Below are positions 39,089 to 56,852 of a stretch of 64,000 nt of DNA, piece after piece. Within the stretch, counting starts at the first letter, position 1. Each line of letters starts with the position of its first letter. The notes beneath the pieces were generated by a model. That model was not told where the DNA came from and searched no databases. It worked only from the letters and a program-made list of their open reading frames with translations. Origin of the DNA: Paraglaciecola sp. L3A3 (GTDB lineage: Bacteria; Pseudomonadota; Gammaproteobacteria; Enterobacterales; Alteromonadaceae); NCBI RefSeq assembly GCF_009796765.1, contig NZ_CP047023.1, positions 4,509,501-4,573,500 on the forward strand. Reading direction: 5' to 3'. The translations under genes were made by a program, and so were the position numbers.

Positions 39089-39104
39089 ATGTTAGCGCTA
39101 ACAT
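39089..39104. promoter_or_regulatory. LacI-family-type operator ATGTTAGCGCTAACAT
   Basis: A perfect 16-bp palindrome with central CG, 167 bp before TonB receptor 1 and 104 bp before the first halogenase-like gene, in the 285-bp gap between these divergent genes. Form and place fit a LacI/GalR-type sugar-responsive repressor controlling both directions. No regulator gene is in the window. Confidence 0.7.
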
Positions 39105-39207: not shown

Positions 39208-40719
39208 ATGCATTTATGTATAGTGGGAGGTGGCTCTGCTGGATGGATGACAGCGGCAGCCCTAGCAAAGAAATTCTCAAGGCAAAAGCTGCAAATTACC
39301 CTTATTGAATCTGCAGAAATTGGCACCGTTGGGGTCGGTGAAGCCACTTTGCCACATATTAGATTTTTCAATCAGGCCCTAGGCATAGACGAACGCGATT
39401 TTATGCGTAAAACCAAAGCTACATTTAAACTGGGGATAGAGTTTGTTAACTGGGGCGGCAAGGGACAACGCTATATGCATCCTTTTGGTGATTTTGGCGA
39501 AAAAATAAATTCAGTCGACTTTTATCAGTATTGGTTATTAGCTCAAAAAGATAATGGCATTGGTAAATTAGAGGACTACGCCTTTGGTATTGCCGCGGCA
39601 AAATCTAACAAATTCAAGATACCAGAAGTGGGCACACTAGATCTGAAAAACTCTTTTGGTTATGCCTATCAATTTGACTCTAGCCTGTATGCCCAATACT
39701 TACGGGAGTTTTCATGCAAACTTGGAGTAAATAAAATAGAAGGAAAAGTTGTTAACACTTCAATAAACGAAACAAATGGCAACATTTCAGAATTAAGCAT
39801 GGAGAATGGCCAACTTATAAGTGCCGATTTATTTGTTGATTGTTCAGGCTTTCGTGGTTTGCTGATTGAGCAAAGTCTAAAATCTGGCTACCAAGATTGG
39901 TCCACTTGGTTACCCTGTGACCGAGCCATTGCTGTACCTTGTGAAAGTACAGAACAGTTAACTCCTTTTACCCGCGCAACAGCTAAAAACGCAGGTTGGA
40001 TTTGGCGAATTCCGTTACAGCATCGTACTGGCAATGGTCATGTATATTGCAGTCAGTTTATTAGTGACGACGCTGCACAACACTCACTTTTAGATCAATT
40101 GGATGGCAAAGTGTTGGCTGAGCCTCGCAAGCTTAGATTTAAAACAGGCCGTAGAAATCACTTTTGGAAAAACAATGTTGTTGCTATCGGCTTGTCAGCA
40201 GGATTTTTAGAGCCACTCGAATCTACCTCTATTCATTTAATTCAAGAAGGCATTACTAAGTTAATCGAACTATTTCCAGCCTTAGATGATCAACAAACCT
40301 GCTCGATTCCACTCACAATAGATGCACTAGATATTACAGAATACAATACTCAGATGGGCTTAGAATATGAGCGTATTCGAGATTTTCTATTATTACACTA
40401 TGTTGCAAACGACCGTAATGATAGCCCTATGTGGGCATATTTTAAAAATATGACACTACCTGATAGCCTGCAAGAAAAACTAGATTTGTGGATGCATCGC
40501 GCCTACATTCAGCGCTATGAAATAGGCGCATTTTTACCACCAAGTTGGGTTGCAGTTTTGCTTGGACAAAACTTGATACCGCATAATGTCGATCCTAGGG
40601 TGCAAGCGTTTGTTGGTGATCATATACGCGCTAGAGCAAATGCGATGCGCGAAGATATCAAGCTAGGTTTACATCAGGCTGAAGAACACCGGGCCTTTTT
40701 GAATCGCTATATATCATGA
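39208..40719 (+). CDS. Tryptophan-halogenase-like flavoprotein, H1
   Basis: A 503-residue flavin-dependent halogenase-family protein. FAD-binding GGGSAGW starts near residue 7, the catalytic-lysine motif TFKLG gives Lys74, the signature WIWRIP starts at Trp264 and FLEPLESTS supplies the catalytic-Glu region. All signature residues of the family are kept. These enzymes use FADH2 and O2 to make hypohalous acid that halogenates an aromatic substrate; here the substrate is unknown, and no flavin reductase gene is nearby. First gene of a four-gene run, divergent from TonB receptor 1. Confidence 0.9.
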   Translation: MHLCIVGGGSAGWMTAAALAKKFSRQKLQITLIESAEIGTVGVGEATLPHIRFFNQALGIDERDFMRKTKATFKLGIEFVNWGGKGQRYMHPFGDFGEKINSVDFYQYWLLAQKDNGIGKLEDYAFGIAAAKSNKFKIPEVGTLDLKNSFGYAYQFDSSLYAQYLREFSCKLGVNKIEGKVVNTSINETNGNISELSMENGQLISADLFVDCSGFRGLLIEQSLKSGYQDWSTWLPCDRAIAVPCESTEQLTPFTRATAKNAGWIWRIPLQHRTGNGHVYCSQFISDDAAQHSLLDQLDGKVLAEPRKLRFKTGRRNHFWKNNVVAIGLSAGFLEPLESTSIHLIQEGITKLIELFPALDDQQTCSIPLTIDALDITEYNTQMGLEYERIRDFLLLHYVANDRNDSPMWAYFKNMTLPDSLQEKLDLWMHRAYIQRYEIGAFLPPSWVAVLLGQNLIPHNVDPRVQAFVGDHIRARANAMREDIKLGLHQAEEHRAFLNRYIS

Positions 40720-40762
40720 CTTTGCCTATGTATCGTATAGATTGTAGTAAGGAATGTTGTAT

Positions 40763-42277
40763 ATGAATAAAAATGAAGTGCACAAGGCCAACTCCGTTAA
40801 TAAAGTGAATCCGAAAAAGCTAGATATCGTGATATATGGTCATAGCATTGCTGCTTTTATATCCGCTTTGACAATCCATAACACACTGGCAGATCAAGTG
40901 TCGCTTTCACTGATATTACCTGCTGAACAGGCGCCCAGCGATGTCTTGTATGGGGGGACAAGCACGCCTGATGCTTATAACCTGCATTTGGCAATGGATA
41001 TTTCTGAGGCGGAGTTACTGCAACAAACCAATTCAAGTTTTTCCTTTGGAACCCATTATCAAAATTGGACAGAAGCAAAATTTAACTGGGTACAAGCCTT
41101 TAGTTTGCCATTTACCTCTATGTACGGCGTTGACTTCCACCAAGTTTTGTTAAAACACAAACAAGACTTACAAACATACTTAGCGGGCGCCCAGTGCGCT
41201 TTACATGAGAAGTTTGCTCATCCACCGCAAAATCAACCAGCATCGCCATTGTCTAGGGCTGAATATGGCTATAATTTTGACTATCAAAGTTACGCACTAT
41301 TCCTACTCAATACAATTAAGCAGAGAAAGATAAAACTGATCCAATCAGATCTTTTAAAAGTCGAAGCCGCAGATGAGCATATTACTAACTTGCGACTAAA
41401 TGACGGTTCCTGCATTGAGGCCGATTTATTCATTGACTGTTCGGGTACTGACGCTAAATTAATCAGCGCTTTGGCTAGCAAAAAACGCGTAGATTCTAAA
41501 ATAAACGTGTCGCTCTTAACTAACGAAAATGACACCCAGATGAAACCGTGTAACCTAGTATCGGGACATGGAAATTCTTGGCAGTCGACGCTTTATTTAC
41601 AAGATTCTAGCCAGATATTGCAAGCTGTTAATGTTAAAGATACGCCTGCAGAAAATATAATGTCTACCAACACAATTGCATCAATTAGCGCTGATATTGG
41701 TGAAAAAAAACGAGCTTGGGTAGGTAATTGTGTAGCTATCAGCCTCAGTGCAGCTGTGCTTGAGCCATTTTCAAATGCGTCCTTTAGATTGCTTAAGCTA
41801 GATATAGAACGCCTTCTAGCGCTAATTCCCATCTCGAATAATATGACCATGGAACAAAAAGAATACAATCGGCGCTATAGATTGGACGTTCAGCACGCCA
41901 AACTATTTAACTTGGCATTGACCGATACCAGACATTTTTCGCAACATGAGCACACTGTTCAAATTAAGAGTCAAAATCCGGTTCTTGATAGTGATACACA
42001 AGCATTGCTCGATAGAAAACTAGCACAATATTTGCACCGTGGATTAATCGTTTCCTACGACTTTGAACCCTTCTACGCCGAAGATTGGATAATACTTCAT
42101 TTTGGTATGCAGCGTTTTCCAAGGCGCCTAAATTGTCTATGTGACAACATAGACAATACACATGTTAAACAGCACTTACTGCAAACCCAAAATACAATAG
42201 TGACCATGGTGCCTAAAATCCCCCCCTGTTCACTCTACACAGAAAAGTTTTTGAATTATTTAAAGAGACAATCATGA
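40763..42277 (+). CDS. Divergent halogenase-like paralogue lacking signature residues, H2
   Basis: A 504-residue protein aligned in length and plan with its neighbours (ADLFIDCSGTDAKL, GNCVAISLSAAVLEPF, DFHQVLLKHKQ) but degenerate at each key place. The glycine-rich FAD motif reads IYGHSIAAF, the catalytic lysine is Ser94 (SFSFG), WxWxIP is absent and PLES is PFSN. The reading frame is intact, so it is not simply a pseudogene. The start at 40763 has AGGA 9 nt upstream; an ATG at 40754 lies directly on that site. It ends in a 4-bp ATGA overlap with H3. A non-catalytic subunit or binding protein is possible but untested. Confidence 0.75.
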   Translation: MNKNEVHKANSVNKVNPKKLDIVIYGHSIAAFISALTIHNTLADQVSLSLILPAEQAPSDVLYGGTSTPDAYNLHLAMDISEAELLQQTNSSFSFGTHYQNWTEAKFNWVQAFSLPFTSMYGVDFHQVLLKHKQDLQTYLAGAQCALHEKFAHPPQNQPASPLSRAEYGYNFDYQSYALFLLNTIKQRKIKLIQSDLLKVEAADEHITNLRLNDGSCIEADLFIDCSGTDAKLISALASKKRVDSKINVSLLTNENDTQMKPCNLVSGHGNSWQSTLYLQDSSQILQAVNVKDTPAENIMSTNTIASISADIGEKKRAWVGNCVAISLSAAVLEPFSNASFRLLKLDIERLLALIPISNNMTMEQKEYNRRYRLDVQHAKLFNLALTDTRHFSQHEHTVQIKSQNPVLDSDTQALLDRKLAQYLHRGLIVSYDFEPFYAEDWIILHFGMQRFPRRLNCLCDNIDNTHVKQHLLQTQNTIVTMVPKIPPCSLYTEKFLNYLKRQS

Positions 42278-43791
42278 ATCAATCATCTACCAATCGCATC
42301 CGAAAAATTGTTATCGCTGGCGGCGGAACCGCGGGTTGGATGTCTGCGGCTGCACTATCAAGCATGCTAAGACCTGATGACGTACAAATTGTACTAGTAG
42401 AATCTGAAGAAATTGGCACGGTTGGAGTGGGTGAAGCAACCATTCCCGATATTATAAGCTTCAATCGCATGTTGGGCATTGATGAAGCTGAATTTTTAAA
42501 GGCAACCAAGGGTACTTTTAAGCTGGGCATAGAGTTTAGTGATTGGGGTAAACTTAGCGATAAATACTTTCATCCATTTGGTAACCATGGTGCAGACATG
42601 AACGGTATTGATTTCCATCAATATTGGCTACATACAAGGCAAGCTGGTAACACCAATGGTTTAGAAGAATACAGCATGTGCGCGGTGGCCGCTAAAAGTA
42701 TGAAGTTTGCCCTACCTAACGATAATCCTCGCTCGCTCTTATCGCAAATTGGTTATGCCTACCATTTTGATGCCACTGCATACGCTTTGTTTCTAAGAAA
42801 CTACGCCCAAAAGCGCGGCGTGATACGAATCGAAGGGCGTATCGAGCAGATATTGCTTAATGAGAAAACTGAAAATATTTCTACACTTATTATGCAAAAC
42901 AATCAGCGTGTTGAGGGTGATTTCTTTTTTGATTGTACTGGGTTTCAATCAAAATTATTAGGCCAAACACTTGGCGTGCCTTTTCACGATTGGACAAAAT
43001 GGCTGCCATGTAACAGTGCTCAAGCAGTTGCAAGCGAACGTCAAGGTGAGTTACTGCCTTACACTAAATCCATGGCCAAAACCGCTGGTTGGCAATGGCG
43101 CATTCCGACTCAGCATAGGACTGGCAACGGCCATATTTACAGCACTAATTTTATGGATGATCAGCAAGCTACAGATATACTTATGCAAGGACTTGATGCC
43201 CCAGCTCTTTCTGACCCACGTACCATAAGATTTACCACTGGCTGCCGAGATAAATTCTGGCATAAAAACTGTGTGGCAATTGGTCTTGCTAGCGGTTTTC
43301 TAGAACCATTGGAGTCGACTTCTATTTTCTTAATACAACAGGGGATCAGCCGCTTTATTTCGTTATATCCGTCTTTAACGCCCCCCGCTAAAGTAGTAGA
43401 AGAATATAACCGTTTAATGACCCGTGAATTTCATCAAGTCAGAGATTTTATTATATTGCATTACAAAGCCACACAACGCACAGATAGCGAATTTTGGCGC
43501 TATTGTAAAAACATGTCGATACCTGACTCTTTGCAACACAAAATGGAGTTATTTCAGTGCGCTGGACGAGTATTCAGAGACGACCACGAGTTATTCTCAA
43601 CTTCTAGCTGGGTAGCCGTAATGATGGGTCAAAACATTTACCCTGAAACAGCAGAGCCAATGTTGCTTGGTGTGCCTATACAAAACATTGAACAGAGCTT
43701 ACAAAGTATGCAACGCGCAATGCAACAAACAAGCTTGCAAATGCCAACCCATGCCGAGTTTATAAAAAACTATGCAGGCTCTTCGATTTAA
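42274..43791 (+). CDS. Tryptophan-halogenase-like flavoprotein, H3
   Basis: A 505-residue family member with an intact FAD motif (AGGGTAGW), Lys83 in TFKLG, WQWRIP from Trp273 and FLEPLESTS. The ATG overlaps the stop of H2 by 4 bp (ATGA), which implies translational coupling with the degenerate paralogue and so similar amounts of the two proteins. HPFGNHGADMNGIDFHQYWL-type wording is shared with H1 (given as HPFGNHG and GIDFHQYWL). Halide preference and substrate are not predictable by eye. Confidence 0.9.
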   Translation: MNQSSTNRIRKIVIAGGGTAGWMSAAALSSMLRPDDVQIVLVESEEIGTVGVGEATIPDIISFNRMLGIDEAEFLKATKGTFKLGIEFSDWGKLSDKYFHPFGNHGADMNGIDFHQYWLHTRQAGNTNGLEEYSMCAVAAKSMKFALPNDNPRSLLSQIGYAYHFDATAYALFLRNYAQKRGVIRIEGRIEQILLNEKTENISTLIMQNNQRVEGDFFFDCTGFQSKLLGQTLGVPFHDWTKWLPCNSAQAVASERQGELLPYTKSMAKTAGWQWRIPTQHRTGNGHIYSTNFMDDQQATDILMQGLDAPALSDPRTIRFTTGCRDKFWHKNCVAIGLASGFLEPLESTSIFLIQQGISRFISLYPSLTPPAKVVEEYNRLMTREFHQVRDFIILHYKATQRTDSEFWRYCKNMSIPDSLQHKMELFQCAGRVFRDDHELFSTSSWVAVMMGQNIYPETAEPMLLGVPIQNIEQSLQSMQRAMQQTSLQMPTHAEFIKNYAGSSI

Positions 43792-43816
43792 ATTCTAATT
43801 TTAAGCAGGTAATTTT

Positions 43817-45316
43817 ATGCAAGGTATGGACGTTAAAGATATCGTCATAGTCGGTGGTGGAACTGCTGGCTGGATGTCAGCTGCAGGCATGTCGAAACTG
43901 CTGGGTAGTAAAAAAATCAATATCCGAATAATTGAATCTGAATCGATAGGCACAGTAGGCGTAGGTGAAGCCACCGTCCCGCATATTCAGTACTTTAATC
44001 GGCTGTTAGGCATTGATGAAAATAGCTTTATTAAAAAAACCAATGCGACCTTCAAACTCGGTATCGAGTTTGTTGACTGGCATAAAATTGGTGAGTCTTA
44101 TTTTCATTCATTTGGCCCTTATGGTCTGGATATGGAAGGCATTCATTTTCATCATATGTGGTTACGCCAACAGAAAATGGGTACTGCCAAACCTATCGAC
44201 GAATTTAACCTACAGGTTCAAGCAGCCAAGGCAGGAAAATTCATGCGTGCACGTCCAGAGTTGCAGGGAAGTCCTCTAAGTGCACTCTCGTACGCATATC
44301 AATTTGACGCGGCATTGTATGCAGCCTTTTTACGAGATTTTTCTGAGAAAAATGGCGTGACTAGAACCGAAGGTAAAATTGTTAAGGTCACCCAAGCAAC
44401 AAACACCGGCCACATTGAATCGGTCACATTGGAAGATGGCGAATGTATTAAAGGTGACTTGTTTATTGATTGTTCAGGCTTTAAGGGCTTACTCATCGAA
44501 GAGACGTTAAAGACGGGATATGAAGATTGGTCACATTACTTGCCCTGCGATAGTGCTGTTACGCGCCTCAGCAAACGTATGACCGATCTTCCTCCATACA
44601 CCCGAGCGACGGCTAAAACGGCAGGTTGGCAGTGGCGTATTCCACTACAGTCAAGAACCGGAAATGGCTATGTGTACTCAAGTCAATTTTTAAGTGACCA
44701 GGATGCAATCGAAAGCCTCAACAAAGACCTTGATACGGCCCCCATCTCAGCCCCTCGTCAGTTAAGGTTTAAAACAGGTATTAGAAAGCAGCCGTGGAAC
44801 AAAAATGTGGTTTCCATAGGTCTTGCTTCGGGTTTTTTAGAGCCGCTTGAATCAACATCGATACACTTAATACAAACCGCTATTGCCAGGCTAATGACTA
44901 ACTTCCCAGATAAGTTATTTAATCAAGCCGATATTGATTTCTATAACGAGTCCACTCATAAGGAATACGTGCAAGTTAGAGATTTATTGATCCTGCACTA
45001 TAAAGCGACTACGCGTCACGATAGCCCGTTCTGGAATTATGTGCGGGAAATGGATATACCGGTGTCGTTAGAGAAGCGTATCGCTATTTATAAAGAAAAT
45101 GCGCGCTTATACAGTGAAGACAAAGAGTTTTTTAATCATAGTAGTTGGTTTGCAATATTCAATGGTCAAAGCATTCACCCACAACGTTATCATCCTATCG
45201 CCAATTTTTTAGACGAAAAAGAAATGGAGAGGCGTATGACAGAAATTCATACCGTGACACAAAAATGCTTAAGCATCATGCCGTCCCATGAGGAATTTTT
45301 GGCGAAACAGCTTTAG
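43817..45316 (+). CDS. Tryptophan-halogenase-like flavoprotein, H4
   Basis: A 499-residue family member: GGGTAGW near residue 13, Lys80 in TFKLG, WQWRIP from Trp271, FLEPLESTS present. It begins 25 bp after H3, with AGG before the ATG, and ends the four-gene run, which is closed by a bidirectional terminator. It is more like H5 of the second locus in several stretches than a chance family member would be (GIDEN, GYEDWSHYLPCD versus GYEDWSHWLPCD), which suggests the two arrays share origin. Confidence 0.9.
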   Translation: MQGMDVKDIVIVGGGTAGWMSAAGMSKLLGSKKINIRIIESESIGTVGVGEATVPHIQYFNRLLGIDENSFIKKTNATFKLGIEFVDWHKIGESYFHSFGPYGLDMEGIHFHHMWLRQQKMGTAKPIDEFNLQVQAAKAGKFMRARPELQGSPLSALSYAYQFDAALYAAFLRDFSEKNGVTRTEGKIVKVTQATNTGHIESVTLEDGECIKGDLFIDCSGFKGLLIEETLKTGYEDWSHYLPCDSAVTRLSKRMTDLPPYTRATAKTAGWQWRIPLQSRTGNGYVYSSQFLSDQDAIESLNKDLDTAPISAPRQLRFKTGIRKQPWNKNVVSIGLASGFLEPLESTSIHLIQTAIARLMTNFPDKLFNQADIDFYNESTHKEYVQVRDLLILHYKATTRHDSPFWNYVREMDIPVSLEKRIAIYKENARLYSEDKEFFNHSSWFAIFNGQSIHPQRYHPIANFLDEKEMERRMTEIHTVTQKCLSIMPSHEEFLAKQL

Positions 45317-45346
45317 ATAAACTAGGGACTGTGAGTCATAAAAAAA

Positions 45347-45369
45347 TAGCGGCATAAGCCGCTACTTTT
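45347..45369. terminator. Bidirectional terminator between H4 and the GH3 gene
   Basis: A 7-bp stem (TAGCGGC / GCCGCTA) with an ATAA loop, A-run on the left and T-run on the right. The convergent genes H4 and GH3 both end here. Confidence 0.85.
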
Positions 45370-45434
45370 TATCTATTCATTAAGCCCAGTGTTGTTGGCC
45401 AATTTAGCTAACCACACTCGTTTAATTCATAATA

Positions 45435-47966
45435 TTAAAATGAACAAACCGCGCCCATATCGTTATCGACTATTTTAATTGCACTGAGTTGAATTGACAG
45501 TCCGGCATCTGAGTGTAATGTAAAGGGCGAAGTCACAGCTTGTAAATTGCCAGCAGATTCAACAAAACAGCTCAGTTTAATATTGGCTTGTTGCCAGCCT
45601 TTACCTACCTTGTTTTTCAAGGCTTGAGTGACATTAATAGTACCATTACAACCCTGCTCACAACCCATAGCTAATGAAACATTACTGGCTGAATGTTGTA
45701 GCAAATTATAATCAAACTGCAGTACTTTACCTGCTTCCATCAAGGCCACTAGATTTACTGGGTTGCCTTGGATTGAAAGATTAGCATCACCGCTCCAAGT
45801 GGCTTCAATAATATCTTCTTGGGCTTGATAATCCGCAGCTTTTACTTGTAATTTAGACATAGAGCTGACTTGAACATTAGAGCTCACTTGAGTATTACCA
45901 CCGGCATCATTTAACACTAAACGCCAAGGTTGCACTGGGTCACCGGCAAACATAAATCGGCTATTATTTTCTTTCACTATGGCCGGATCTAATGTTTCAT
46001 CAATCAGCTGAATATCTTTTTTATCTTCAACTGACAAACCATATCCATAAGCAAACAATGGTTGATAAGGTGCACTGCCATGATTCAGTTCAACATCTAA
46101 AGGATTATTCGGCCAAGAAAATGATAAACGACCGACAAAGTCATATTGGATATTTTCATCTTTATCTCTAAATAACACATCAGCAACTCCTGATCCCTCA
46201 CTACCCGGCAACCAAGCAGCAACAAAGGCATTAGAAGCATTCAACTCTGGATTAACCCACATAGGGCGACCGGATAAAAATACACTGACAGTAGGAATAC
46301 CTGCTGCTTGTAAATCACGTAATACTTGTAAGCTTTGTTCTGGTTTAAAGTCTAAGTCAGTCACATCACCTTGAAATTCAGCATAAGGTTGCTCACCAAA
46401 AATCACAATCGCTACATCAGGTTTCTCTTCATATTCGCCGGTGGCATTAAGGCTTACCTGTCCACCAGCAGCATTAACAGCAGCGGATATCCCCTGGTAA
46501 ATGGACTGGCCATTAGGGAAATCTGAATTTTTGTTACCTGTGCCTTGCCAAGTTAAGGTCCAGCCCCCTGATTGTTGTCCAATATTATCCGCAGCATCCC
46601 CCGCCACTAACACTTTTGATTTAGCCGAGAGAGGCAACAAATTTTTATTGTTTTTTAATAAAACCAGTGATTTACGTACAGCTTCTCGAGCTACTTCTCT
46701 GTGCTGGGCTGAGCCTAATAATTCGAATTTTCCGGCATATGGACGACTAGAGGGTAAACCCGCTTCAAATAAGCCGGCACGCATTTTAACCCGCAAAATT
46801 CGAGATACGGCTTGGTCTAATCTAGCCATGCTGATTTCACCTGATTTAACTTGCGCTAAGGTATTTTCATATAAGCCTTTCCAGCTATCAGGGGCCATAA
46901 ACATATCTAAACCGGCATTAAAGGCTTTGGCACAAGAAGTGTTTGAACAACCTTTGACTTGACCATGACCGTTCCAGTCACCCACAACAAATCCATCAAA
47001 ACCCATTCGCCCCACTAACACATCAGTCAATAGAGGTTTGTGACCATGCATTTTTTCGCCATACCAACTATTAAATGACGCCATCACAACTAATGCGCCA
47101 CTTTGAATAGCAGGAGGATAACCTGCGGCATGTATATCTCTTAACTGTGCTTCGCTAGCTAAGGTTTCACCTTGGTCGACACCATCTGTTGTGCCACCGT
47201 CACCTACATAGTGTTTAACATTAGCTAACAAATGCCCATTAGTTAAAAAGTCTGCAGAATTTACTGCACCTTGAATACCTTCCACCACTTTACCTGCGTA
47301 ACTGGCAACTATTTCTGGCTTTTCAGAATAACTTTCAAAGGTACGACCCCATCTATCATTTTGTACCACCGCAATTGTTGGGGCAAAAGTCCAATCAATA
47401 CCAGTCACTAACACTTCTTTAGCCGTTACCTCGCCAATCTTTTCCATTAACTCAGGGGAATTAGCCGCACCTAAACCTATATTGTGAGGAAAGATAGTGG
47501 CCCCTGACACGTTATTATTGCCATGTACTGCATCTATGCCCCATAAGGCCGGAATACCAAGATTACCATCAGAGGTGTCAGTAGAGGCTAACCAAAATTC
47601 ATCGGCCAGTTGCAGCCAATCTTTGGCTGGAGAACGGTTATCACCATTAGGCGCTGAGTTCCCCCCATTTAGAATTGAACCTAAATGATATTTTTTAACA
47701 TCTTCTGGGGTCACAGAGGCAATATCCCCTTGAATGACCTGCCCTACTTTTTCTTCCAAGGTCATTTTAGCGAGTAGCTCTGCAATTTTTGCCTCTTGAG
47801 CAGGATCACGAGCAATGGGTGACGATTGTTTAGGCCATAATTCAGGATGGATTACACCTGCAGCATTATTATCAATTTGATCATGCTGAGATGACTTAGA
47901 AACAGTTGTTGGATTACAACTAATAAATACAGCCACTAAAGGTAAAACAAGTAATTTTTTTTGCAT
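45435..47966 (-). CDS. GH3 family exo-acting beta-glycosidase, lipoprotein
   Basis: An 843-residue protein with a lipoprotein signal (VFISC, Cys17), a GH3 N-terminal barrel (about 55-400) with FAPTIAVVQNDRWGRTFESY and the nucleophile Asp in GFDGFVVGDWNGHG, then the GH3 C-terminal alpha/beta-sandwich (VLLKNNKNLLPL, VSVFLSGRPMWVNPE) and an extra beta domain of about 170 residues as in the ExoP-type glucan hydrolases. It probably releases glucose or xylose from oligosaccharides; beta-glucan is my preferred substrate. AGGA precedes the ATG. Last gene of the second glycan locus, with its own upstream palindrome. Confidence 0.93.
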   Translation of the reverse strand: MQKKLLVLPLVAVFISCNPTTVSKSSQHDQIDNNAAGVIHPELWPKQSSPIARDPAQEAKIAELLAKMTLEEKVGQVIQGDIASVTPEDVKKYHLGSILNGGNSAPNGDNRSPAKDWLQLADEFWLASTDTSDGNLGIPALWGIDAVHGNNNVSGATIFPHNIGLGAANSPELMEKIGEVTAKEVLVTGIDWTFAPTIAVVQNDRWGRTFESYSEKPEIVASYAGKVVEGIQGAVNSADFLTNGHLLANVKHYVGDGGTTDGVDQGETLASEAQLRDIHAAGYPPAIQSGALVVMASFNSWYGEKMHGHKPLLTDVLVGRMGFDGFVVGDWNGHGQVKGCSNTSCAKAFNAGLDMFMAPDSWKGLYENTLAQVKSGEISMARLDQAVSRILRVKMRAGLFEAGLPSSRPYAGKFELLGSAQHREVAREAVRKSLVLLKNNKNLLPLSAKSKVLVAGDAADNIGQQSGGWTLTWQGTGNKNSDFPNGQSIYQGISAAVNAAGGQVSLNATGEYEEKPDVAIVIFGEQPYAEFQGDVTDLDFKPEQSLQVLRDLQAAGIPTVSVFLSGRPMWVNPELNASNAFVAAWLPGSEGSGVADVLFRDKDENIQYDFVGRLSFSWPNNPLDVELNHGSAPYQPLFAYGYGLSVEDKKDIQLIDETLDPAIVKENNSRFMFAGDPVQPWRLVLNDAGGNTQVSSNVQVSSMSKLQVKAADYQAQEDIIEATWSGDANLSIQGNPVNLVALMEAGKVLQFDYNLLQHSASNVSLAMGCEQGCNGTINVTQALKNKVGKGWQQANIKLSCFVESAGNLQAVTSPFTLHSDAGLSIQLSAIKIVDNDMGAVCSF

Positions 47967-48153
47967 TTTACATCCTGCTTATAGTTAACTTTTAGTGTCA
48001 CCACAATTAACTATATATAAAAGAAGCGATCATGAAACGCTCTGTATATGGATTCATGTCAAATTTATAATTCGCGGAAATATCCCCCGAATGTAAACTG
48101 GAGCATCGATAGATAACTGCTCGGTTAAATATTACTGCCACGGATATGGCACG

Positions 48154-48579
48154 TTAAAAGAAAACGTTTTCAATTTTAATATAACACGATTTACAAGGCA
48201 TTCCATATTGTGGAATTTCACCTTTTAGATCAATCTGATATGAACGAATACGTGATTCACCAATAAACTCAAAACCACTATCTCGATGATGGTAAAAATA
48301 GCTACCACCATGTTCGGCATCACACAAATAATGACGAATAACTATCAACTTTATCCAGTTGCTGCGCTTCTATATACAAAACCGAACACAACAATGCAGA
48401 TAAGTCTTTTTTAGCATAACCCCATAATATTTAAGGGCGACAGAACGTAGTCCAGGATAATGACTAACAGAAGGTGCCACATCATTTTTTGTCATGGCAT
48501 AATCAATTGAACTACTGGTATCCTGAACAACGTTATCTATCACTAAAATAGGTTGCTGTTCTTGGCCTATATGCAGCAC
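48154..48579 (-). pseudogene. Broken DUF6445-family gene
   Basis: Two open fragments in different frames resemble the ends of a DUF6445 protein: an N-terminal part (QQPILVIDNVVQDTSS, SHYPGLRSVALKYYG) and a C-terminal part (EHGGSYFYHHRDSGFEF, RIRSYQIDLKGEIPQYG). The central half of a normal protein of roughly 230-250 residues is missing. The frame upstream of the first fragment also has a stop, so the N-terminus is damaged too. DUF6445 genes commonly accompany halogenase-like genes and TonB receptors, and this one follows H5 directly in the same direction. Confidence 0.65.
48160..48171. promoter_or_regulatory. Possible LacI-type operator before GH3
   Basis: Perfect 12-bp palindrome GAAAACGTTTTC, 194 bp before the GH3 start. 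The 14-mer AGAAAACGTTTTCA matches the 14-mer before TonB receptor 2 at 12 of 14 bases. It overlaps the last codons of the DUF6445 remnant, so part of the pattern could be inherited coding sequence. Confidence 0.45.
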
Positions 48580-48634
48580 TTCTTAACTCAATTTATTGCT
48601 CAACATATTCTTCGATCGTTGTTAGTAACAACAC

Positions 48635-50137
48635 CTATTTTGCCTTGCAATTTTGATTAATAAATTCTTGGTGTGAAGGCATATAGTTTTTTGATTTATT
48701 AACCACTGACTTTATTCCTTCCATTCGATTATGTAGCTCTTCCTCGCTAAAAATATCTACCAGCGCGTGATAAGAGTCAGGAACGATCCCCTGTCCATAC
48801 ATCACTTCAAACCAACTAAGATCATTGAACATCTCATTATTGAAACGAGCAATACGGCCATTTCGTTTAAATTGTTCAATCTTTTGGGTGAGCTCAACAG
48901 GCACGTCCATAGTTCGGCAATATTTCCAAAAAGGGGAGTCATCTCGTTCTGTTACGTAATAGTGTAAAATCAGAAAATCACGAATACGTTCATACTCAAA
49001 ATCGATTTGGCGGTTATATTCGTCGATATCTTCTTGATCAAAGTTTTTATTTGGGAAGAAACTAAACAGTTTAGACAACGCAGACTGAACTAAGTGAATA
49101 CTAGTAGATTCCAAGGGCTCCATAAAACCGCCAGCCAACCCTAATGCCAAACAATTTTTATTCCAACTTTTACGTCGCTTACCTGTCACAAATTTCAATA
49201 TTCTAGGCTCAGCTAAAGGTTCGCCATCCAAATTATCTAACAAAATTTGGGTAGCTTCTTCATCCGACATGAATTGACTGCAATACACATGCCCATTGCC
49301 AATACGGTTTTGTAAAGGAATACGCCATTGCCAACCAGCTTTGTGTGCAGTAGAACGAGTAAATGGCCAAGGTTCACCAGCACTGGCACAAGGTACTGCA
49401 ACAGCTCTATCACAAGGTAACCAATGTGACCAATCTTCGTATCCTGTATGCAGAGCCTCTTCAATTAGCACGCCTCGAAAACCTGAACAATCAATGAAAA
49501 AGTCAGCCTGATACTCTTGGCCATCATCAAGCTGCACAGAGTGAATAAATCCACTATCACGCAAATTAGTTTTCACTACTTTGCCTTCTGTACGGATCAC
49601 TCCATTACTCTCAGATAATTCACGTAGATATTTAGCATATAAGCCAGCATCGAAGTGAAAAGCATAAGCAATATTAGACAGCGGTGAATTACCCGCATCG
49701 ATAGAGCGCATAAAACGGTTTTCATGGCATGCAGAAGCAGTTAATGTATATTCATCTATGTCGGCAGCTTTGCCTAATGCACGCATTTTCAACCAATATT
49801 GATAGAAATGTACCCCTTCCATATCTTTACCTACATCACCAAAAGCATGGAAATAACTACTGCCTTTTTTATTCCAATTAACAAATTGAATACCTAATTT
49901 AAAGGTAGCCTGAGTTTTACGAACAAAATCATTTTCATCCAAACCGAGAAGTTGATTATAAAGTTGAATTTGCGGGATGGTGGCTTCCCCTACACCAACA
50001 GTACCAATTTGCTCTGACTCCACTAAACGTATCTCACAAAACTCTTGACGTAAAACTTTAGACAGTGCCGCAGCAGCCATCCAGCCGGCGGTTCCGCCGC
50101 CCAAAATTAATATTTTTTTTATCTTATTATTTTGCAT
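48635..50137 (-). CDS. Tryptophan-halogenase-like flavoprotein, H5
   Basis: A 500-residue family member with GGGTAGW near residue 13, Lys80 in TFKLG, the WQWRIP signature, and FMEPLESTS. I chose ATG 50137, 12 nt after GGAG; a GTG at 50155 has no ribosome site. It lies 45 bp after H6 and is the last intact halogenase-like gene of the second array. Like the others it should be a soluble cytoplasmic FADH2-dependent enzyme; the substrate is unknown. Confidence 0.9.
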   Translation of the reverse strand: MQNNKIKKILILGGGTAGWMAAAALSKVLRQEFCEIRLVESEQIGTVGVGEATIPQIQLYNQLLGLDENDFVRKTQATFKLGIQFVNWNKKGSSYFHAFGDVGKDMEGVHFYQYWLKMRALGKAADIDEYTLTASACHENRFMRSIDAGNSPLSNIAYAFHFDAGLYAKYLRELSESNGVIRTEGKVVKTNLRDSGFIHSVQLDDGQEYQADFFIDCSGFRGVLIEEALHTGYEDWSHWLPCDRAVAVPCASAGEPWPFTRSTAHKAGWQWRIPLQNRIGNGHVYCSQFMSDEEATQILLDNLDGEPLAEPRILKFVTGKRRKSWNKNCLALGLAGGFMEPLESTSIHLVQSALSKLFSFFPNKNFDQEDIDEYNRQIDFEYERIRDFLILHYYVTERDDSPFWKYCRTMDVPVELTQKIEQFKRNGRIARFNNEMFNDLSWFEVMYGQGIVPDSYHALVDIFSEEELHNRMEGIKSVVNKSKNYMPSHQEFINQNCKAK

Positions 50138-50182
50138 ATTTAATACATGCTCCACATCATGGGTTGCATAACACTAATCGAC

Positions 50183-51661
50183 TTATGAACGATTAAACTG
50201 ATGATAAAAATCTCGATAATGGGGCATTCCGGCCACAAGTTTATCGATTGATAATTTAATTTTATTCAATGAGTCATGAAGTTGCTCATTACTCATATTC
50301 GATAAATATAAGCTCGATAATTGAGGAATAATCCCCATTCCAGCCAACAATCCATTCCAAGCAACATCACTAACAGCATCAGTATTTGACGTGGTCAAAC
50401 GCCCTAAGCGCTGGAACAAATCCAATCGCTGTTGCAATTTTTTTGAGCGTATCGAAGCGCTAACAAGAGATCCTTGCTCTAAAAACGCATAATGGCACTG
50501 CACATAATCATTTGCCTCAGCAATAAATTGCAGCCATTGATTATTAAACCAAATTTTACTGACATTATTATCGCCAAGTGAAGGATATACTCCCAAAAAC
50601 TGCACCAATGCAGCTTGCACGAAATACAGTTCCGAAAAAAACAACTTACTCATGCTTACATTGCTATTGCCAACTGATAAGCAGTTGCCCTGCCAAGCTT
50701 TGGCGTTCATTTTAAACTTATTTTTTCGATGTACGATTAACTCAACTTTTGAGTCCGACAACGATAAATAATCAGCAAGCCATTGATTGATTTCAACCTC
50801 ACTCACTTGTTGGCTATTATACTCGAGCTGGACACAAGCCTGCTCTGCTAACGGGAGTATTTTCAACCACCCCCAATGTGTAACATGCAACTGATTATAT
50901 GGTTGATCGAGACAAGTTTTATCATCTACCAGACACTCTGCGTATTTATCCCAACAAGAGTCATTACTCTGAGTAGTCACCTCATCATGATTAGCCATAA
51001 AACGAGTCAAATCACCACTACAGTCAATCCAAAAATCAGCAGTTAGCTCATGTTGTCCATCGAGTGTAATTGCTTCAATATCAAAGTCAGCCCCACAGTT
51101 AACAGAAAAACTATTAGCTTTTATAAAAGTGACCTTACGTGCTAAAGCAAATTCTTTTAGCTGCTTTTCATAGTTATTTGCTTCTAAATTAACAGCAAAA
51201 TCTAAAGCTTGTTGTAAATCAGGTCTACTAGCTGGGGGAATAGCAAACTTTCCTTGTTTTGCAGCATGGGCCGCAATACTCGCAGATTCCAATTGTATGG
51301 ACGGGTCACTTCGCTTAAGCCTCAATAAACCTTGTACAAATTCATTATCTTCACCTTGAATCCCAAAATGACCATAGGAAACAAACCAATCACGTTGCTG
51401 GTTGATATACCGCTGCCCAAGGCTAAATGTTCCCTTACACTGCTGCATTATATTTTTAAATGGCAATTTTAATATATTGCACAATGACATAAATTCACTA
51501 CCAGTGGATTCAACCTGTCCAGTATCACCCCCTTTAATTTCAACAGCAGTTATCCGCACTGGTTGGTCTGCAAGTTGTGAGGATAAGATCACAGCTGACA
51601 TCATCAAAGGTAAATGTTGACCGACTAACACAATATGTTTGATTGACATAGATTCATTCAT
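50183..51661 (-). CDS. Divergent halogenase-like paralogue lacking signature residues, H6
   Basis: A 492-residue relative of the neighbouring halogenase-like proteins. The FAD glycine motif reads LVGQHLPLMM, the catalytic lysine is Ser80 (TFSLG), WxWxIP is replaced by GWLKILPL and the PLES segment is lost. The scaffold is kept (ADFWIDCSGDLTRFM, WQGNCLSVGNSN, YVQCHYAFLEQ). The frame is intact. The start overlaps the H7 stop by 4 bp (ATGA), with GGAGG 7 nt upstream, so it is coupled to a canonical partner just as H2 is coupled to H3. Confidence 0.78.
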   Translation of the reverse strand: MNESMSIKHIVLVGQHLPLMMSAVILSSQLADQPVRITAVEIKGGDTGQVESTGSEFMSLCNILKLPFKNIMQQCKGTFSLGQRYINQQRDWFVSYGHFGIQGEDNEFVQGLLRLKRSDPSIQLESASIAAHAAKQGKFAIPPASRPDLQQALDFAVNLEANNYEKQLKEFALARKVTFIKANSFSVNCGADFDIEAITLDGQHELTADFWIDCSGDLTRFMANHDEVTTQSNDSCWDKYAECLVDDKTCLDQPYNQLHVTHWGWLKILPLAEQACVQLEYNSQQVSEVEINQWLADYLSLSDSKVELIVHRKNKFKMNAKAWQGNCLSVGNSNVSMSKLFFSELYFVQAALVQFLGVYPSLGDNNVSKIWFNNQWLQFIAEANDYVQCHYAFLEQGSLVSASIRSKKLQQRLDLFQRLGRLTTSNTDAVSDVAWNGLLAGMGIIPQLSSLYLSNMSNEQLHDSLNKIKLSIDKLVAGMPHYRDFYHQFNRS

Positions 51662-53208
51662 ATTCTGCCTCCATATAAACTTAGTGCAGCATTAGGGTAA
51701 GCACTAAAACCAATTCGCTGAATGTTTTGAATCGCTATGTTGTGGTTTTGCATTTCGCTAGCTGTTTGAGAAACCTGCTCGGCCATTTTATTTAAATAAT
51801 ACTGCAGCTTTTCAACGGGGTAAGTCAACACTCGAGGATCATAATGGAGAGGTAAACTATCTTGACCTAAATACACAGCCAACCAACTCGCAGGCATGAA
51901 TAAACCTTGGCGGTAAGTGGAGATATGAGCACTATGTTGAAAAAGTGTCATCTGTTGCTGCAAAGAATCGGGTATAGGCATATTTTGGCAATAACGCCAA
52001 AATTCTGAATCATTACGTCGATTTAGTTTGTAATGTAAAATTAGAAAATCTCTAACCCGTTCATATTCAGTGTCCAAGTGTCGATTAAAAGCGTTTCTCT
52101 CAACATCGTTAATTTTGTCAGCAGGAAAAAATTCGATCAGTTTTTGAATAGCTATTTGCGTCAAATACAAACTTGTAGACTCGAGTGGCTCTAAAAAACC
52201 GGCTGATAACCCAATCGCAATACAGTTTTTAGACCATGACTTATTACGTTTGCCTGTAGTAAAGCGTAACAACCTTGGGTCGGATAATGCCGGTTCTTCA
52301 AGACCATCGAGCAAAATTGCATGTGCTTCATCATCAGATAAATAATCACCACAAAATACTAATCCATTACCGGTTCGATGCTGAACAGGTACCCGCCATT
52401 GCCAACCCACTTTTTTGGCAGCAGAACGAGTATAAGGAGGTGGATCGATTGTTTTTTCACTGGCAACAGCTAATGCTTTATTGCAAGGCAACCAATGAGT
52501 CCAATCTTGATAACCTGTTTTAAGCGCCTCTTCAATTAATAATCCTCGAAACCCAGAGCAGTCGATAAATAAATCGCCTTCTATCTTTTGTCCCGACTCC
52601 AGCTGAACAGACTGAATATCACCACTATCATCAGCAAGGTTAACCACTGTAACTTTACCCTCGATTGTCCTGACACCTCGTTTAATAGAGTAAGATTTAA
52701 GATATTTAGCATATAAGGTGGCATCTAGGTGAAACGCGTAACTGTAGTCATCTAACAACGCATTTTGATTTTGTTGTTGGTATTGAAATTTTTTCTTTTG
52801 TGCCGCAACTACAGCTATAGAATACTGATCAAATTCAGCTAATTTAAGCCCCTGTTGTTGCTGTAAATGCAACCAATAATGATGAAAATTAATTCCATTA
52901 ATATCATGGCCACTATGGCCAAAGGGATGCATATAGCTACTATCTTTACTACCCCAACCGGTAAACTGAATCGCTAATTTATAGGTTGCTCCGGTAGCAC
53001 GCATAAATTCATTTTCATCAATACCAAGCATCTGATTAAATTGACGAATATGTGGAATAGTTGCTTCACCCACACCAACAGTGCCAATCATATTTGATTC
53101 TATTTGGGTTATTTCAAATTGCATTTTAGGTAAAAATTGAGACAGTCCAGCTGCGGTCATCCAACCTGCAGAACCACCTCCTACAATAACTATTTTCTTT
53201 TTTTTCAT
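51658..53208 (-). CDS. Tryptophan-halogenase-like flavoprotein, H7
   Basis: A 516-residue family member with GGGSAGW near residue 10, Lys77 (TYKLA rather than TFKLG), WQWRVP in place of WQWRIP, and FLEPLESTS. The frame is open to 53289, but that extension runs into a terminator-like hairpin; the ATG at 53208 (MKKKKIVIVGGG) matches the family start. Its ribosome site is weak. First gene of the second halogenase-like run, 131 bp after TonB receptor 2. Confidence 0.88.
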   Translation of the reverse strand: MKKKKIVIVGGGSAGWMTAAGLSQFLPKMQFEITQIESNMIGTVGVGEATIPHIRQFNQMLGIDENEFMRATGATYKLAIQFTGWGSKDSSYMHPFGHSGHDINGINFHHYWLHLQQQQGLKLAEFDQYSIAVVAAQKKKFQYQQQNQNALLDDYSYAFHLDATLYAKYLKSYSIKRGVRTIEGKVTVVNLADDSGDIQSVQLESGQKIEGDLFIDCSGFRGLLIEEALKTGYQDWTHWLPCNKALAVASEKTIDPPPYTRSAAKKVGWQWRVPVQHRTGNGLVFCGDYLSDDEAHAILLDGLEEPALSDPRLLRFTTGKRNKSWSKNCIAIGLSAGFLEPLESTSLYLTQIAIQKLIEFFPADKINDVERNAFNRHLDTEYERVRDFLILHYKLNRRNDSEFWRYCQNMPIPDSLQQQMTLFQHSAHISTYRQGLFMPASWLAVYLGQDSLPLHYDPRVLTYPVEKLQYYLNKMAEQVSQTASEMQNHNIAIQNIQRIGFSAYPNAALSLYGGRI

Positions 53209-53338: not shown

Positions 53339-56300
53339 TTAGAAATTACCACGTACCACCAAAGCAACGCGGCGATCCGATTCAAACCATGACCGACCAG
53401 CTTCTAATCCCTCATTGGAAAGTTGCATGATAGTTTCAGATACCGAGTTAGTCATATTGGTCCCTTGAATGCCCACAGTAATATTATCCGAGACCTTATA
53501 AAAAACAGATCCATCTAACTGACCATGATCGTCATACCATAATGGTACTTTACTAATGACATCACGAGTAGTTAACAAGTACTTAGAGCGCCAGTTATAT
53601 GCTAAACGTGCATTCCACCCATTTTTTTCATACATAGCCACAAAATTAGCAGTATGCTTAGATTGTCCTTGTAATGGCACATTATCTAAGGTGATACGCA
53701 CACCAGGATCTTCATCTGGCTTACCTGCCCAAGATTCGTCCTCGTATTCAATTTCGTTATTCGGCACACCGCTAGCATCAATATAGGTATAAGTCGCTTG
53801 TACACCTAGGCCATCAAATGGTGCAGGTAACTTATCAAAGAATTGTTGATAGGCTAGTTCTAAACCATCCATAGTTCCTTTACCACCGTTTGTTGTTGTC
53901 GAAACCAACACAGTTTGTACCTCTCCATTAGACGGATTAGTAAAAGAACGAGGGAAACCACCTTGAATAAAATAATTACTTAAATCTTTATGGAACAAGG
54001 TTGCACTCAACTGCCCGACATCAGCAAAATACCACTCTAACCCAATATCATATTGAACCGATTCCATAGGCTCCAATAATGGGTTTCCACCACTGCCTGT
54101 CCATGAACCAACATAAGTTTCTAGCAGTAAATTATCTTCAGGTTCTGGTGGATTCTCTGGATCGATAGGTCCTCCAGCTCTTACAGTAGTAATATCACTG
54201 GCACCAAGCGAAGAATAGTTAGTAATATCGCCAATATCAGGTAATGCTACAGCCTTCGATAGAGCAAAACGCGCGATTAACTCATCGCTTAACTCCAGTT
54301 TAAGATTAAAGCTAGGTAAAAACATTTTGAATGTTTTTTCGGCAGCTAAAGCTTCTCTATAATTGTTACCAAAAGCTCTTGATGCGTCAGGTAAATAATT
54401 ATTTTGTTCGCTAATCCAAGCATTGGCTTCAATTACGTTAGCAACAGTTAAACTAGGATCTGCGGTAATTTGTTGAATAATAAAATTAGTTACAATTTCA
54501 GGAGTTAGTTGCACATCACCAATAGATGCCGGCGGTGCGAGCCCTTCTCCAGGAACTAAATCAGGAAAACTAACAAAACCAGATGCATCACGTTTTAATT
54601 CTACATAACGTAAACCAATGTTACCGCTATAACGAATATCGTCATCACTCTCAAAGTTTAATTTTACATAGAGAGCCTTATTGGTTTCTATGGTATTGCT
54701 CACATCACTAGGTGAAAACAAGCCAAATTCAGCGTCTACATCGTCATAATCGGGATAAGGTACCCAGTCACCAGCAGCAGATTGATAAGGTCTAGCACCA
54801 GCGATCACTGAACGAACATAATCTTCCGTTAGATGAATAGTTTTATTACCTGGAATATTTGCAGCATCTCCGCCCATGAAATCAGACCAATCAACACTTT
54901 CATATGAATCTGCCGAAATTTCAGGTGTTGTCGCTAACCAAGATGCGGGTGCTGCACCACTAAACTCAGGACCTAAAGCTCCCCAGTTCCAACCAGTTTT
55001 ACGGATAGTTTGTTCACGTTTTGCGTAACGAACCCCCATCTCAACAGAACTAAGAATACCGGCATCCTCTAGAAAATATTTTCCGTCTAAACGTGCTGCA
55101 ATAGAATCACCTTCAGACCGCTCGTAATGATCCATCGCCGACCGCAAAAAGTATGAATTGGGGTCGTTAAAGTAGTTACTATCACCGGCAGGATCATCTG
55201 AGAAACCAGGATAACCTGTTGCAAAGGCATCAGGATCTGCATCACGAGCACCTAACCAAGGCTCTAAAAAGGCTACGGTAGGACTACCACCTGTTAAATC
55301 ATATTCTTGAGCAATGAAGGTAGCCGTGCTAATCAACACGTCATCATCTTGGGTATCGGCTTTGATATACTGTACATCGCCTGTTAACGTTAAATTATCA
55401 GTCGCCAACCAACGCACATTAAATGAATAATCTTCTACTAGATTACTGGTGTCTTTTACACGGCTTTCAAATTGGTTTATATGTCCCCATTGATTAGCTG
55501 CGTTATCTCCCCATGCTCTAGGTACATGATCAACATTACCATCAGCAACTCTCCAGCCACCAGCGCCCTGAGTGATGGTGCCAGATTCAAAACGTCCCAT
55601 ATCATCAAAGGCAAACTGAGTTCCTTCTAATGGTCGGGAAGCATTTTCTCCAGCTAAATTTTGCTTATAGCCACCTTGATATTTAATTGCTTGTTCATGC
55701 CAAGATAAAGTGGCATCAGAACGAATATACTGGAAGCTAGCTAAAACTGTATCATCAGCACTCTCAAACTGCATCGCTGTAGAAAAACCTTCACGTTCAC
55801 GATGGTCTGTTTTTTGGAGTAAGTTAGCCCCATTTGGCATCCATACTTTACCAGAACCATCACCTACAAAATCTTCTGCGCCAGCAAGCTCACTAGCGTT
55901 ATATTGTACATAGGCATCAGATTGAATACCCTCAGAAGCGCCGTTTAAAGTAGACTTTGCATAATTGATTAGCAAACCAAATTCTGCGCCGCTATCCAAT
56001 TCCCAGCGATCACTATAAAGAACTGAAAATGTAGGGCTCCCTTCTTCTGCAATATCTCCATAAGAGTAATCAGCATTAAACGCAAACACTCGGCCTTGCG
56101 CATCAAATGGTTTACGAGTTCGTAAACTAATGGTACCGCCAATACCACCTTCAATCATATCGGCAGTTTGGCTCTTATATACATCAACCCCCCCCATCAA
56201 CTCAGGGGATACGTCTTGGAAAGACAAACCTCGACCTGAGTTTGCAGTGAAAGAGTCACGACCATTAAATTCAGAGCGAGTTTGGGTCATACCACGTATA

Positions 56301-56650: not shown

Positions 56651-56838
56651 AAATGTTACCTCTTGTATGTTAAGAGTTACATCCAACCAATCAGCTGTAA
56701 CTCTAGTAGAAATGTTTCCAACAACCTTTATATCGATGGAACTGTGTTCAATTAGCGTCAAATAAAACGGTTACAAATGAACAGATGTTTTTATAAATAG
56801 TTTGCATTGTTATTATCTTAGTTTGACTACTATGCCAA

Positions 56839-56852
56839 TGAAAACGATTTCA
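56839..56852. promoter_or_regulatory. Possible LacI-type operator before TonB receptor 2
   Basis: TGAAAACGATTTCA, a near-palindrome with central CG, 189 bp before the receptor start and 12 of 14 bases like the site before GH3. Suggests one repressor for both transcription units of this locus. Nothing else is seen between 56651 and the mobile element at 56996. Confidence 0.5.

What the first reader, a model, noticed from the sequence alone, without database searches (positions are those of the whole stretch)
39208..53208. Seven halogenase-like flavoproteins in two arrays, each tied to a TonB receptor and a glycan hydrolase
Four genes (H1-H4) run divergently from a receptor/xylanase unit and three (H7, H6, H5) follow a second receptor, with GH3 downstream. 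Five carry every signature of flavin-dependent halogenases (GGGxAGW, TFK/TYK lysine, WxWR(I/V)P, EPLES). Similar genes near TonB receptors are known in marine bacteria and a few have been shown to brominate indoles, but why a glycan locus needs so many is not explained. Possibilities are halogenation of phenolic or aromatic groups linked to hemicellulose, defence compounds made while feeding, or a non-halogenating oxidation.
Basis: partly seen in the sequence, partly recalled or inferred. Interest (0 to 1): 0.75.

Follow-up and report, generated by a model that had tools for sequence, protein, structure and literature searches.

The report
Receptor-linked halogenase arrays with silent member
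Next to two nutrient-uptake receptors this marine bacterium carries ordered rows of halogen-adding enzymes in which the second gene has lost its halogenation machinery, and similar rows with a silent second gene recur in many other bacteria, which hints at a multi-part machine whose target is unknown.

Summary
In detail: seven PF04820 genes in two arrays, five with all halogenase signatures (H1, H3, H4, H5, H7), two without (H2, H6). The arrays are conserved modules. H1 and H7 belong to one first-position clade; H2, H3, H4, H5 and H6 each group with same-position genes of other genomes; so the two arrays are not recent tandem copies, though a common origin of all second-position genes is unresolved. 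Receptors beside arrays form one receptor clade; receptor and halogenase distances correlate (r 0.84-0.96). The 4-gene promoter carries a xyl-box-like operator; two alphaproteobacterial 4-gene arrays carry the exact published xyl-box. All 20 full-length halogenases of this genome lie within 5.1 kb of a TonB receptor, one at a glycerol-like locus, so aryl groups on hemicellulose are an unlikely general target. Best reading: a receptor-dedicated machine in which BrvH-type halogenases plus a non-halogenating paralog modify an aromatic, probably peptidyl, target. Substrate, halide and complex are untested, and a simple prediction (one aromatic residue shared by paired receptors) failed.

The parts
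35602..38922 (-). TonB-dependent receptor 1 (TIGR01782 type), beside the 4-gene array
   Evidence: 526.9 bits, cut-off 310; array-receptor set
33270..35429 (-). GH10 xylanase with two CBM4_9 stretches, downstream of receptor 1
39090..39103 (.). perfect palindrome TGTTAGCGCTAACA (xyl-box-like, LacI-type operator) in the divergent receptor-1/H1 promoter
   Evidence: published xyl-box sequence in PMC10380989 (passage)
39208..40719 (+). H1, active-type halogenase, array position 1
   Evidence: position-1 set
40754..42277 (+). H2, degenerate (non-halogenating) halogenase paralog, array position 2
   Evidence: AF2 model, fold match
42274..43791 (+). H3, active-type halogenase, position 3 of the 4-gene array
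43817..45316 (+). H4, active-type halogenase, last position of the 4-gene array
45435..47966 (-). GH3 glycosidase with Exop_C domain
48016..48567 (-). traces of a DUF6445 (PF20043) gene after H5, with no open frame of 150 aa; intact relatives lie by other halogenases
48159..48172 (.). LacI-type near-palindrome AGAAAACGTTTTCA upstream of GH3 (weak evidence)
48635..50155 (-). H5, active-type halogenase, last position of the 3-gene array
50183..51661 (-). H6, degenerate (non-halogenating) halogenase paralog, position 2
51658..53208 (-). H7, active-type halogenase, position 1 (start codon probably at 53208)
53339..56761 (-). TonB-dependent receptor 2 (TIGR01782 type), upstream of and co-directional with H7-H6-H5
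   Evidence: 627.2 bits; array-receptor set
56839..56852 (.). LacI-type near-palindrome TGAAAACGATTTCA upstream of receptor 2 (weak evidence)

Best explanation
The two arrays are versions of one conserved module: a TonB receptor plus three or four position-specific halogenase paralogs. The active-type members (H1/H7 first, H3 third, H4 and H5 last) are BrvH/Xcc4156-type flavin enzymes with the catalytic Lys and Glu and a short, open substrate loop, presumably cytoplasmic. The second member (H2, H6) belongs to the same fold family but has lost the flavin motif, catalytic Lys and the other halogenase motifs, and is kept by selection; it most likely acts as a non-halogenating partner that binds or presents the substrate or holds the active enzymes together. 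The module is switched on with its receptor by sugar-sensing LacI-type regulators (XylR-like for the 4-gene array) and most likely halogenates or oxidises an aromatic side chain in a receptor-associated, probably peptidyl target (the receptor itself or a partner) before export. Shown by computation: anatomy, conserved order, lost motifs, purifying selection, co-inheritance with the receptor, operator sequence. Inferred: location, complex formation, peptidyl target, halogenation as the reaction, the regulator.
For: Tree: first genes of the degenerate-type arrays, H1 and H7 included, in one set of 23 rows; H3 with four other third genes, H4 with four other fourth genes, H5 with two other last genes, H2 with four other second genes, H6 with one. 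Selection: dN/dS 0.16 vs 0.04-0.05, 0.31 vs 0.14-0.18, 0.35 vs 0.25-0.29 for position 2 vs the active genes of the same genome pair; the H2 family has its own invariant residues. Receptors beside arrays lie in one set of 26 of 97 (20 array, 6 single-gene; 100) with 0 of 19 unpaired receptors of this genome inside; Mantel r 0.84-0.96 of receptor against each halogenase position. 13 of 13 halogenase clusters of the genome within 5 kb of a receptor, at most 7 in 20,000 random placements. Operator. Open pocket compared by its authors with the peptide halogenase MibH: BrvH paper PMC5945002 (passages); H5 aligns to BrvH without gaps through that loop.
Against: No aromatic residue is common to halogenase-paired receptors and absent from unpaired ones (77 vs 19 receptors), so a single shared receptor target is not supported; array receptors do share clade-specific Trp (W563 of receptor 1 / W593 of receptor 2 in 20 of 20; 19% of other paired, 5% of unpaired), but these may be sugar-binding residues. 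13 of 80 relative loci show no receptor in the DNA held. The distance correlations have no species-tree control, so shared descent alone could produce much of them, and co-inheritance does not prove contact. Lys is kept in degenerate genes of L054 (position 4), L061, L098 and L116. Third and last genes of distant arrays scatter (3 and 4 label changes) and one third gene (L060) falls among last-position genes. 2 of 33 arrays (L126, L127) break the rule. H2-type genes are patchy: 3 of 21 other same-genus genomes. The sites upstream of receptor 2 and GH3 belong to a pattern no more frequent than its reversed control (9 and 10 vs 8 and 9). Three-gene arrays of the nine relatives tested showed no TG...CA palindrome. 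BrvH brominates free indole in vitro (PMC5945002), so a small-molecule target remains possible.
Confidence: 0.45

Rival explanations
1. The arrays make halogenated (mainly brominated) small aromatic compounds, such as bromo-indoles or phenolics, used as signals, defence compounds or to tag plant or algal aromatics taken in with the glycan; the position-2 gene is an accessory subunit.
For: The closest characterised homologue type, BrvH, brominates free indole in vitro (PMC5945002, passages); all five active members are nearest to 9luq, BrvH and Xcc4156 among solved structures.
Against: Indole turnover by BrvH is so low that the authors doubt it is the natural substrate (same paper). Among the ORFs of at least 150 aa scanned between 31 and 62 kb no biosynthetic partner gene was seen. 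Halogenases are spread over 13 clusters, each by a receptor, which a shared signal or defence product would not need.
Confidence: 0.25
2. The enzymes are not halogenases in the cell but flavin monooxygenases that oxidise or hydroxylate a receptor-linked substrate, alongside the Cupin_8, SapC and DUF6445 proteins found at sister loci.
For: Weak matches to the peptidyl-Trp monooxygenase QhpG and to the LodB/GoxB maturases, far below their cut-offs (7ctq); Cupin_8 genes at 18 of 80 relative loci and 3 of the 4 in this genome beside a halogenase.
Against: The halogenase Lys, Glu and WxWR(I/V)P are intact in all five active members, and homologues halogenate in vitro.
Confidence: 0.2
3. Position 2 is simply a decaying duplicate with no role.
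For: Faster evolution than its neighbours (dN/dS 1.2 to 3.7 times higher) and many broken motifs; patchy within the genus.
Against: Long open frames (at least 380 aa matched, 330 aa) at the same position in 29 of 33 arrays across alpha- and gammaproteobacteria (two more only as weak matches), dN/dS well below 1, own invariant motifs, confident halogenase fold for H2 (pLDDT 89.3).
Confidence: 0.05

Closest known systems
BrvH (6frl), Xcc4156 (6y1w) and Pseudoalteromonas L11 halogenase (9luq): group C flavin-dependent halogenases
   Same: H1, H3, H4, H5 and H7 match these three best of all solved structures (421-558 bits), with the same catalytic motifs and short open substrate loop; BrvH also had a second halogenase gene next to it (PMC5945002, passage).
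   Different: The passages seen describe single enzymes; word searches for TonB returned 0 in PMC5945002, PMC7336383 and PMC8269204. I saw no positional array and no non-halogenating member described there.
MibH and other RiPP halogenases
   Same: Open pocket, Trp within a peptide as target (the BrvH paper compares BrvH with MibH, passage).
   Different: Similarity is low (MibH 5uao 197 bits with H5) and no precursor peptide gene was identified here.
CUT systems / xyl-box regulon of Xanthomonas and Caulobacter
   Same: TonB receptor, GH10 and a xyl-box-like operator (PMC10380989, passages).
   Different: The CUT paper PMC1790865 has no occurrence of halogenase, SapC or tryptophan in its main text (word search).
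QhpG, LodB and GoxB flavoprotein maturases
   Same: Related flavoproteins that act on protein side chains (role recalled; family names).
   Different: Only weak matches, far below the NCBIfam cut-offs.

Membership tests
Flavin-dependent halogenase, group C (BrvH type): H1, H3, H4, H5, H7 | Trp_halogenase domain over full length | tested here: met
   E 1.3e-179 to 4.5e-198
Flavin-dependent halogenase, group C (BrvH type): H1, H3, H4, H5, H7 | GGGxAGW, catalytic Lys, WxWR(I/V)P, EPLES Glu | tested here: met
Flavin-dependent halogenase, group C (BrvH type): H1, H3, H4, H5, H7 | short substrate loop in place of the Trp-halogenase lid | tested here: met
   H5 aligns gap-free to BrvH there; the others have no insertion there relative to H5; BrvH loop described in PMC5945002 (passage)
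Flavin-dependent halogenase, group C (BrvH type): H1, H3, H4, H5, H7 | halide transfer to an aromatic substrate with FADH2 | not testable with these tools
   needs an enzyme assay
Flavin-dependent halogenase: H2 and H6 | catalytic Lys, flavin motif, WxWxIP and EPLES | tested here: not met
   in the H2 family 20 of the 21 rows shown have Ser and one Thr at the Lys position
Flavin-dependent halogenase: H2 and H6 | halogenase fold | tested here: met
   H2 only: AF2 pLDDT 89.3, pTM 0.89, best match BrvH TM 0.83; H6 by sequence match only
XylR (LacI-type) regulon | xyl-box operator in the promoter | tested here: inconclusive
   TGTTAGCGCTAACA is one base from the published TGGTAGCGCTAACA; the only other exact copy in the genome lies by a LacI-type gene and an MFS_2 + GH43 operon; the one-mismatch count is not above its control (3 and 3 vs 4 and 4)
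XylR (LacI-type) regulon | binding and derepression by xylose | not testable with these tools
   needs expression data
TonB-dependent receptor, Xanth-Caul subfamily | TIGR01782 above cut-off | tested here: met
   526.9 and 627.2 bits, cut-off 310
RiPP halogenase cluster (MibH type) | precursor peptide gene in the cluster | tested here: inconclusive
   genes are spaced by 34 bp or less, leaving no room inside the arrays; small ORFs elsewhere were not searched

The most novel reading that the evidence does not exclude
Proteobacteria carry receptor-dedicated, multi-subunit halogenase machines, several active flavin halogenases plus an obligate non-halogenating paralog, which install halogen (bromine in sea water) on aromatic side chains of an outer-membrane nutrient receptor or its partner, giving a first physiological role to the large BrvH/Xcc4156 group.
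Probability: 0.2. Interest if true: 0.92.

Novelty: new variant of a known kind. Interest (0 to 1): 0.72.

Why it matters
The native substrates of BrvH and of three Xanthomonas halogenases are stated to remain unknown (PMC7336383, passage). The fixed gene order, the conserved non-halogenating member and the co-inheritance with one receptor clade turn that open question into concrete tests: a named receptor, a likely inducer (xylan/xylose), a named partner protein and a few candidate residues.
Full report
OBSERVATION. All seven genes are present and match Trp_halogenase over its length. H1, H3, H4, H5 and H7 carry GGGxAGW, TFK/TYK, WxWR(I/V)P and EPLES; H2 and H6 carry none of them in full. The two receptors are TIGR01782 TonB receptors above the curated cut-off; the neighbours are GH10+CBM4_9 and GH3. 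Spacing within arrays is 34 bp or less, with two 4-bp overlaps.

GENOME. The window lies in a 5.31 Mb single-contig genome. The genome has 20 full-length PF04820 genes, one broken one, and one more distant gene. The 20 form 13 clusters, 13 of 13 within 5 kb of one of 34 TIGR01782 receptors (largest distance of a single gene 5,060 bp); 20,000 random placements reached at most 7. One such locus has GH94, an MFS_2 symporter and a LacI gene nearby; one, receptor-halogenase-SapC beside an FGGY kinase and a DAO-type dehydrogenase, looks like a glycerol locus; for most others the nutrient is unclear. SapC (7 copies, 6 by a receptor and halogenase) and Cupin_8 (4 copies, 3 beside a halogenase) recur at these loci.

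ARRAYS ELSEWHERE. A receptor is found in 67 of 80, within 1 kb of a halogenase in 60; Cupin_8 in 18, SapC in 3. 22 of the 80 loci hold three or more halogenases in tandem. In order of transcription they repeat the window: Hal - degenerate - Hal - Hal (11 loci: sphingomonads, Oceanicaulis, Aestuariibacter, Asticcacaulis, Erythrobacter and others) or receptor - Hal - degenerate - Hal (8 loci: Gilvimarinus, Glaciecola, Aliiglaciecola, Caulobacter, Parvularcula, Aquisalinus and others), plus a 5-gene version in Cellvibrio mixtus; L126 and L127 are the exceptions. At least two of four motifs are broken in 20 of 22 recovered position-2 genes (window included) and in 1 of 1 position-4 gene of the 5-gene array, against 1 of 61 at the other array positions and 1 of 85 non-array genes. 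Total: 31 of 33 arrays, 2 of them (L081, L131) by weak profile match only.

TREES. In a 114-row tree the first genes of the degenerate-type arrays, H1 and H7 among them, form one supported set of 23 (97). H3, H4, H5, H2 and H6 group with same-position genes of other genomes (97-100). Third and last genes of more distant arrays scatter, and one third gene (L060) falls among last-position genes. All degenerate position-2 genes fall outside the 92-row active set (98), but many have long branches, H2 and H6 do not join, and their joint origin is not shown. Receptors beside arrays lie in one set of 26 of 97 receptors (20 array, 6 single-gene; 100) containing none of 19 unpaired receptors of this genome. 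Receptor distances correlate with those of every halogenase position (r 0.89-0.96 for 10 four-gene loci, 0.84-0.90 for 8 three-gene loci), without a species-tree control. The window's 4-gene module groups with that of Asticcacaulis, an alphaproteobacterium, for the receptor and for H1, H2, H3 and H4 alike, which suggests transfer as a unit.

POSITION 2. dN/dS in three pairs of genomes is 0.16, 0.31 and 0.35 against 0.04-0.05, 0.14-0.18 and 0.25-0.29 for the active genes; two further pairs were saturated. H2 has 170 homologues at E <= 0.001 (120 listed), 76-84% identical in Colwellia relatives, Thalassotalea and Paraglaciecola aquimarina, with their own invariant residues (42 aligned). Within the genus it is patchy: 3 of 21 other genomes, at 36-39% identity; beyond the genus 0 of the other 38 genomes searched at E <= 1e-60. 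The AF2 model is confident and nearest to BrvH (TM 0.83). H6 has a small family, eight others at 34% identity or more. So position 2 is a maintained protein without the halogenation equipment; whether it binds flavin or a partner was not tested.

REGULATION. The receptor-1/H1 promoter holds the perfect palindrome TGTTAGCGCTAACA. The only other exact copy in the genome is next to a LacI-type gene, upstream of an MFS_2 symporter and a GH43 beta-xylosidase. The count with one mismatch (3 and 3) is not above its control (4 and 4), so the case rests on exact copies and on place. The published xyl-box is TGGTAGCGCTAACA (PMC10380989, passage); its exact reverse complement lies in the same promoter of two alphaproteobacterial 4-gene arrays (L057, L061), and no other of the 80 relative loci has a match. 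L062, L063, L081, L085, L104 and L131 carry other TG...CA palindromes near the receptor or array; L060, L111, L123 and the nine 3-gene or 5-gene relatives showed none. The receptor-2/GH3 sites are weaker evidence.

MECHANISM. BrvH and Xcc4156 relatives act on indoles in vitro, native substrates unknown (PMC5945002, PMC7336383, passages), and BrvH's open pocket was compared by its authors with MibH, which needs a peptide-borne Trp (passage). With the receptor as the most constant partner, I judge a receptor-associated, probably peptidyl, target most likely. Against it: no residue common to all paired receptors; clade-specific Trp exist but may bind sugar.

LITERATURE. Ten full-text searches were made. 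Four returned no paper; of the rest I saw the listed part only (for example 15 of 123 papers, 25 of 184). I saw no paper on halogenases tied to TonB receptors or on halogenase pseudoenzymes; the library holds only open-licence papers, so this is not proof of absence. PMC11337851 (passages) reports halogenase transcripts assigned to Colwellia and phages, with a speculation on virus-receptor redox but no link to TonB receptor genes in the passages seen.

Noticed in passing
window 48016-48567 (minus): Traces of a DUF6445 gene after H5 with no open frame of 150 aa; DUF6445-like genes lie at 9 of 80 and 2 of 20 relative loci and once beside a halogenase in the stretches of this genome that were fetched (3168275-3168976); L194 has one directly after its 3-gene array.
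   Followed up: partly
L066:1851-2552; own genome loci: SapC (PF07277) by receptors and halogenases: a confident AF2 model (pLDDT 93.3) with no significant match to a solved structure, possibly an undescribed fold.
   Followed up: partly
own genome 3161777-3168272 and 4430386-4436923; L201, L203: A recurring order receptor - (halogenase) - SapC - Cupin_8 - halogenase, a second type of receptor-linked locus.
   Followed up: partly
own genome 3453031-3456194: A receptor followed by a broken halogenase fragment with two stops.
   Followed up: no
own genome 4755676-4756935: A distant PF04820-matching flavoprotein in a cluster with ketosynthase-like genes, perhaps aryl polyene (recalled, from sequence only).
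   Followed up: no
L192, L193: A two-gene halogenase pair with Cupin_8 facing a second pair whose second member is strongly degenerate, a further array type.
   Followed up: no
window TBDR1 W563 and W570, TBDR2 W593: Trp conserved in 20 of 20 (W563/W593) and 90% (W570) of array receptors but rare in other receptors; candidate targets or sugar-binding residues.
   Followed up: partly
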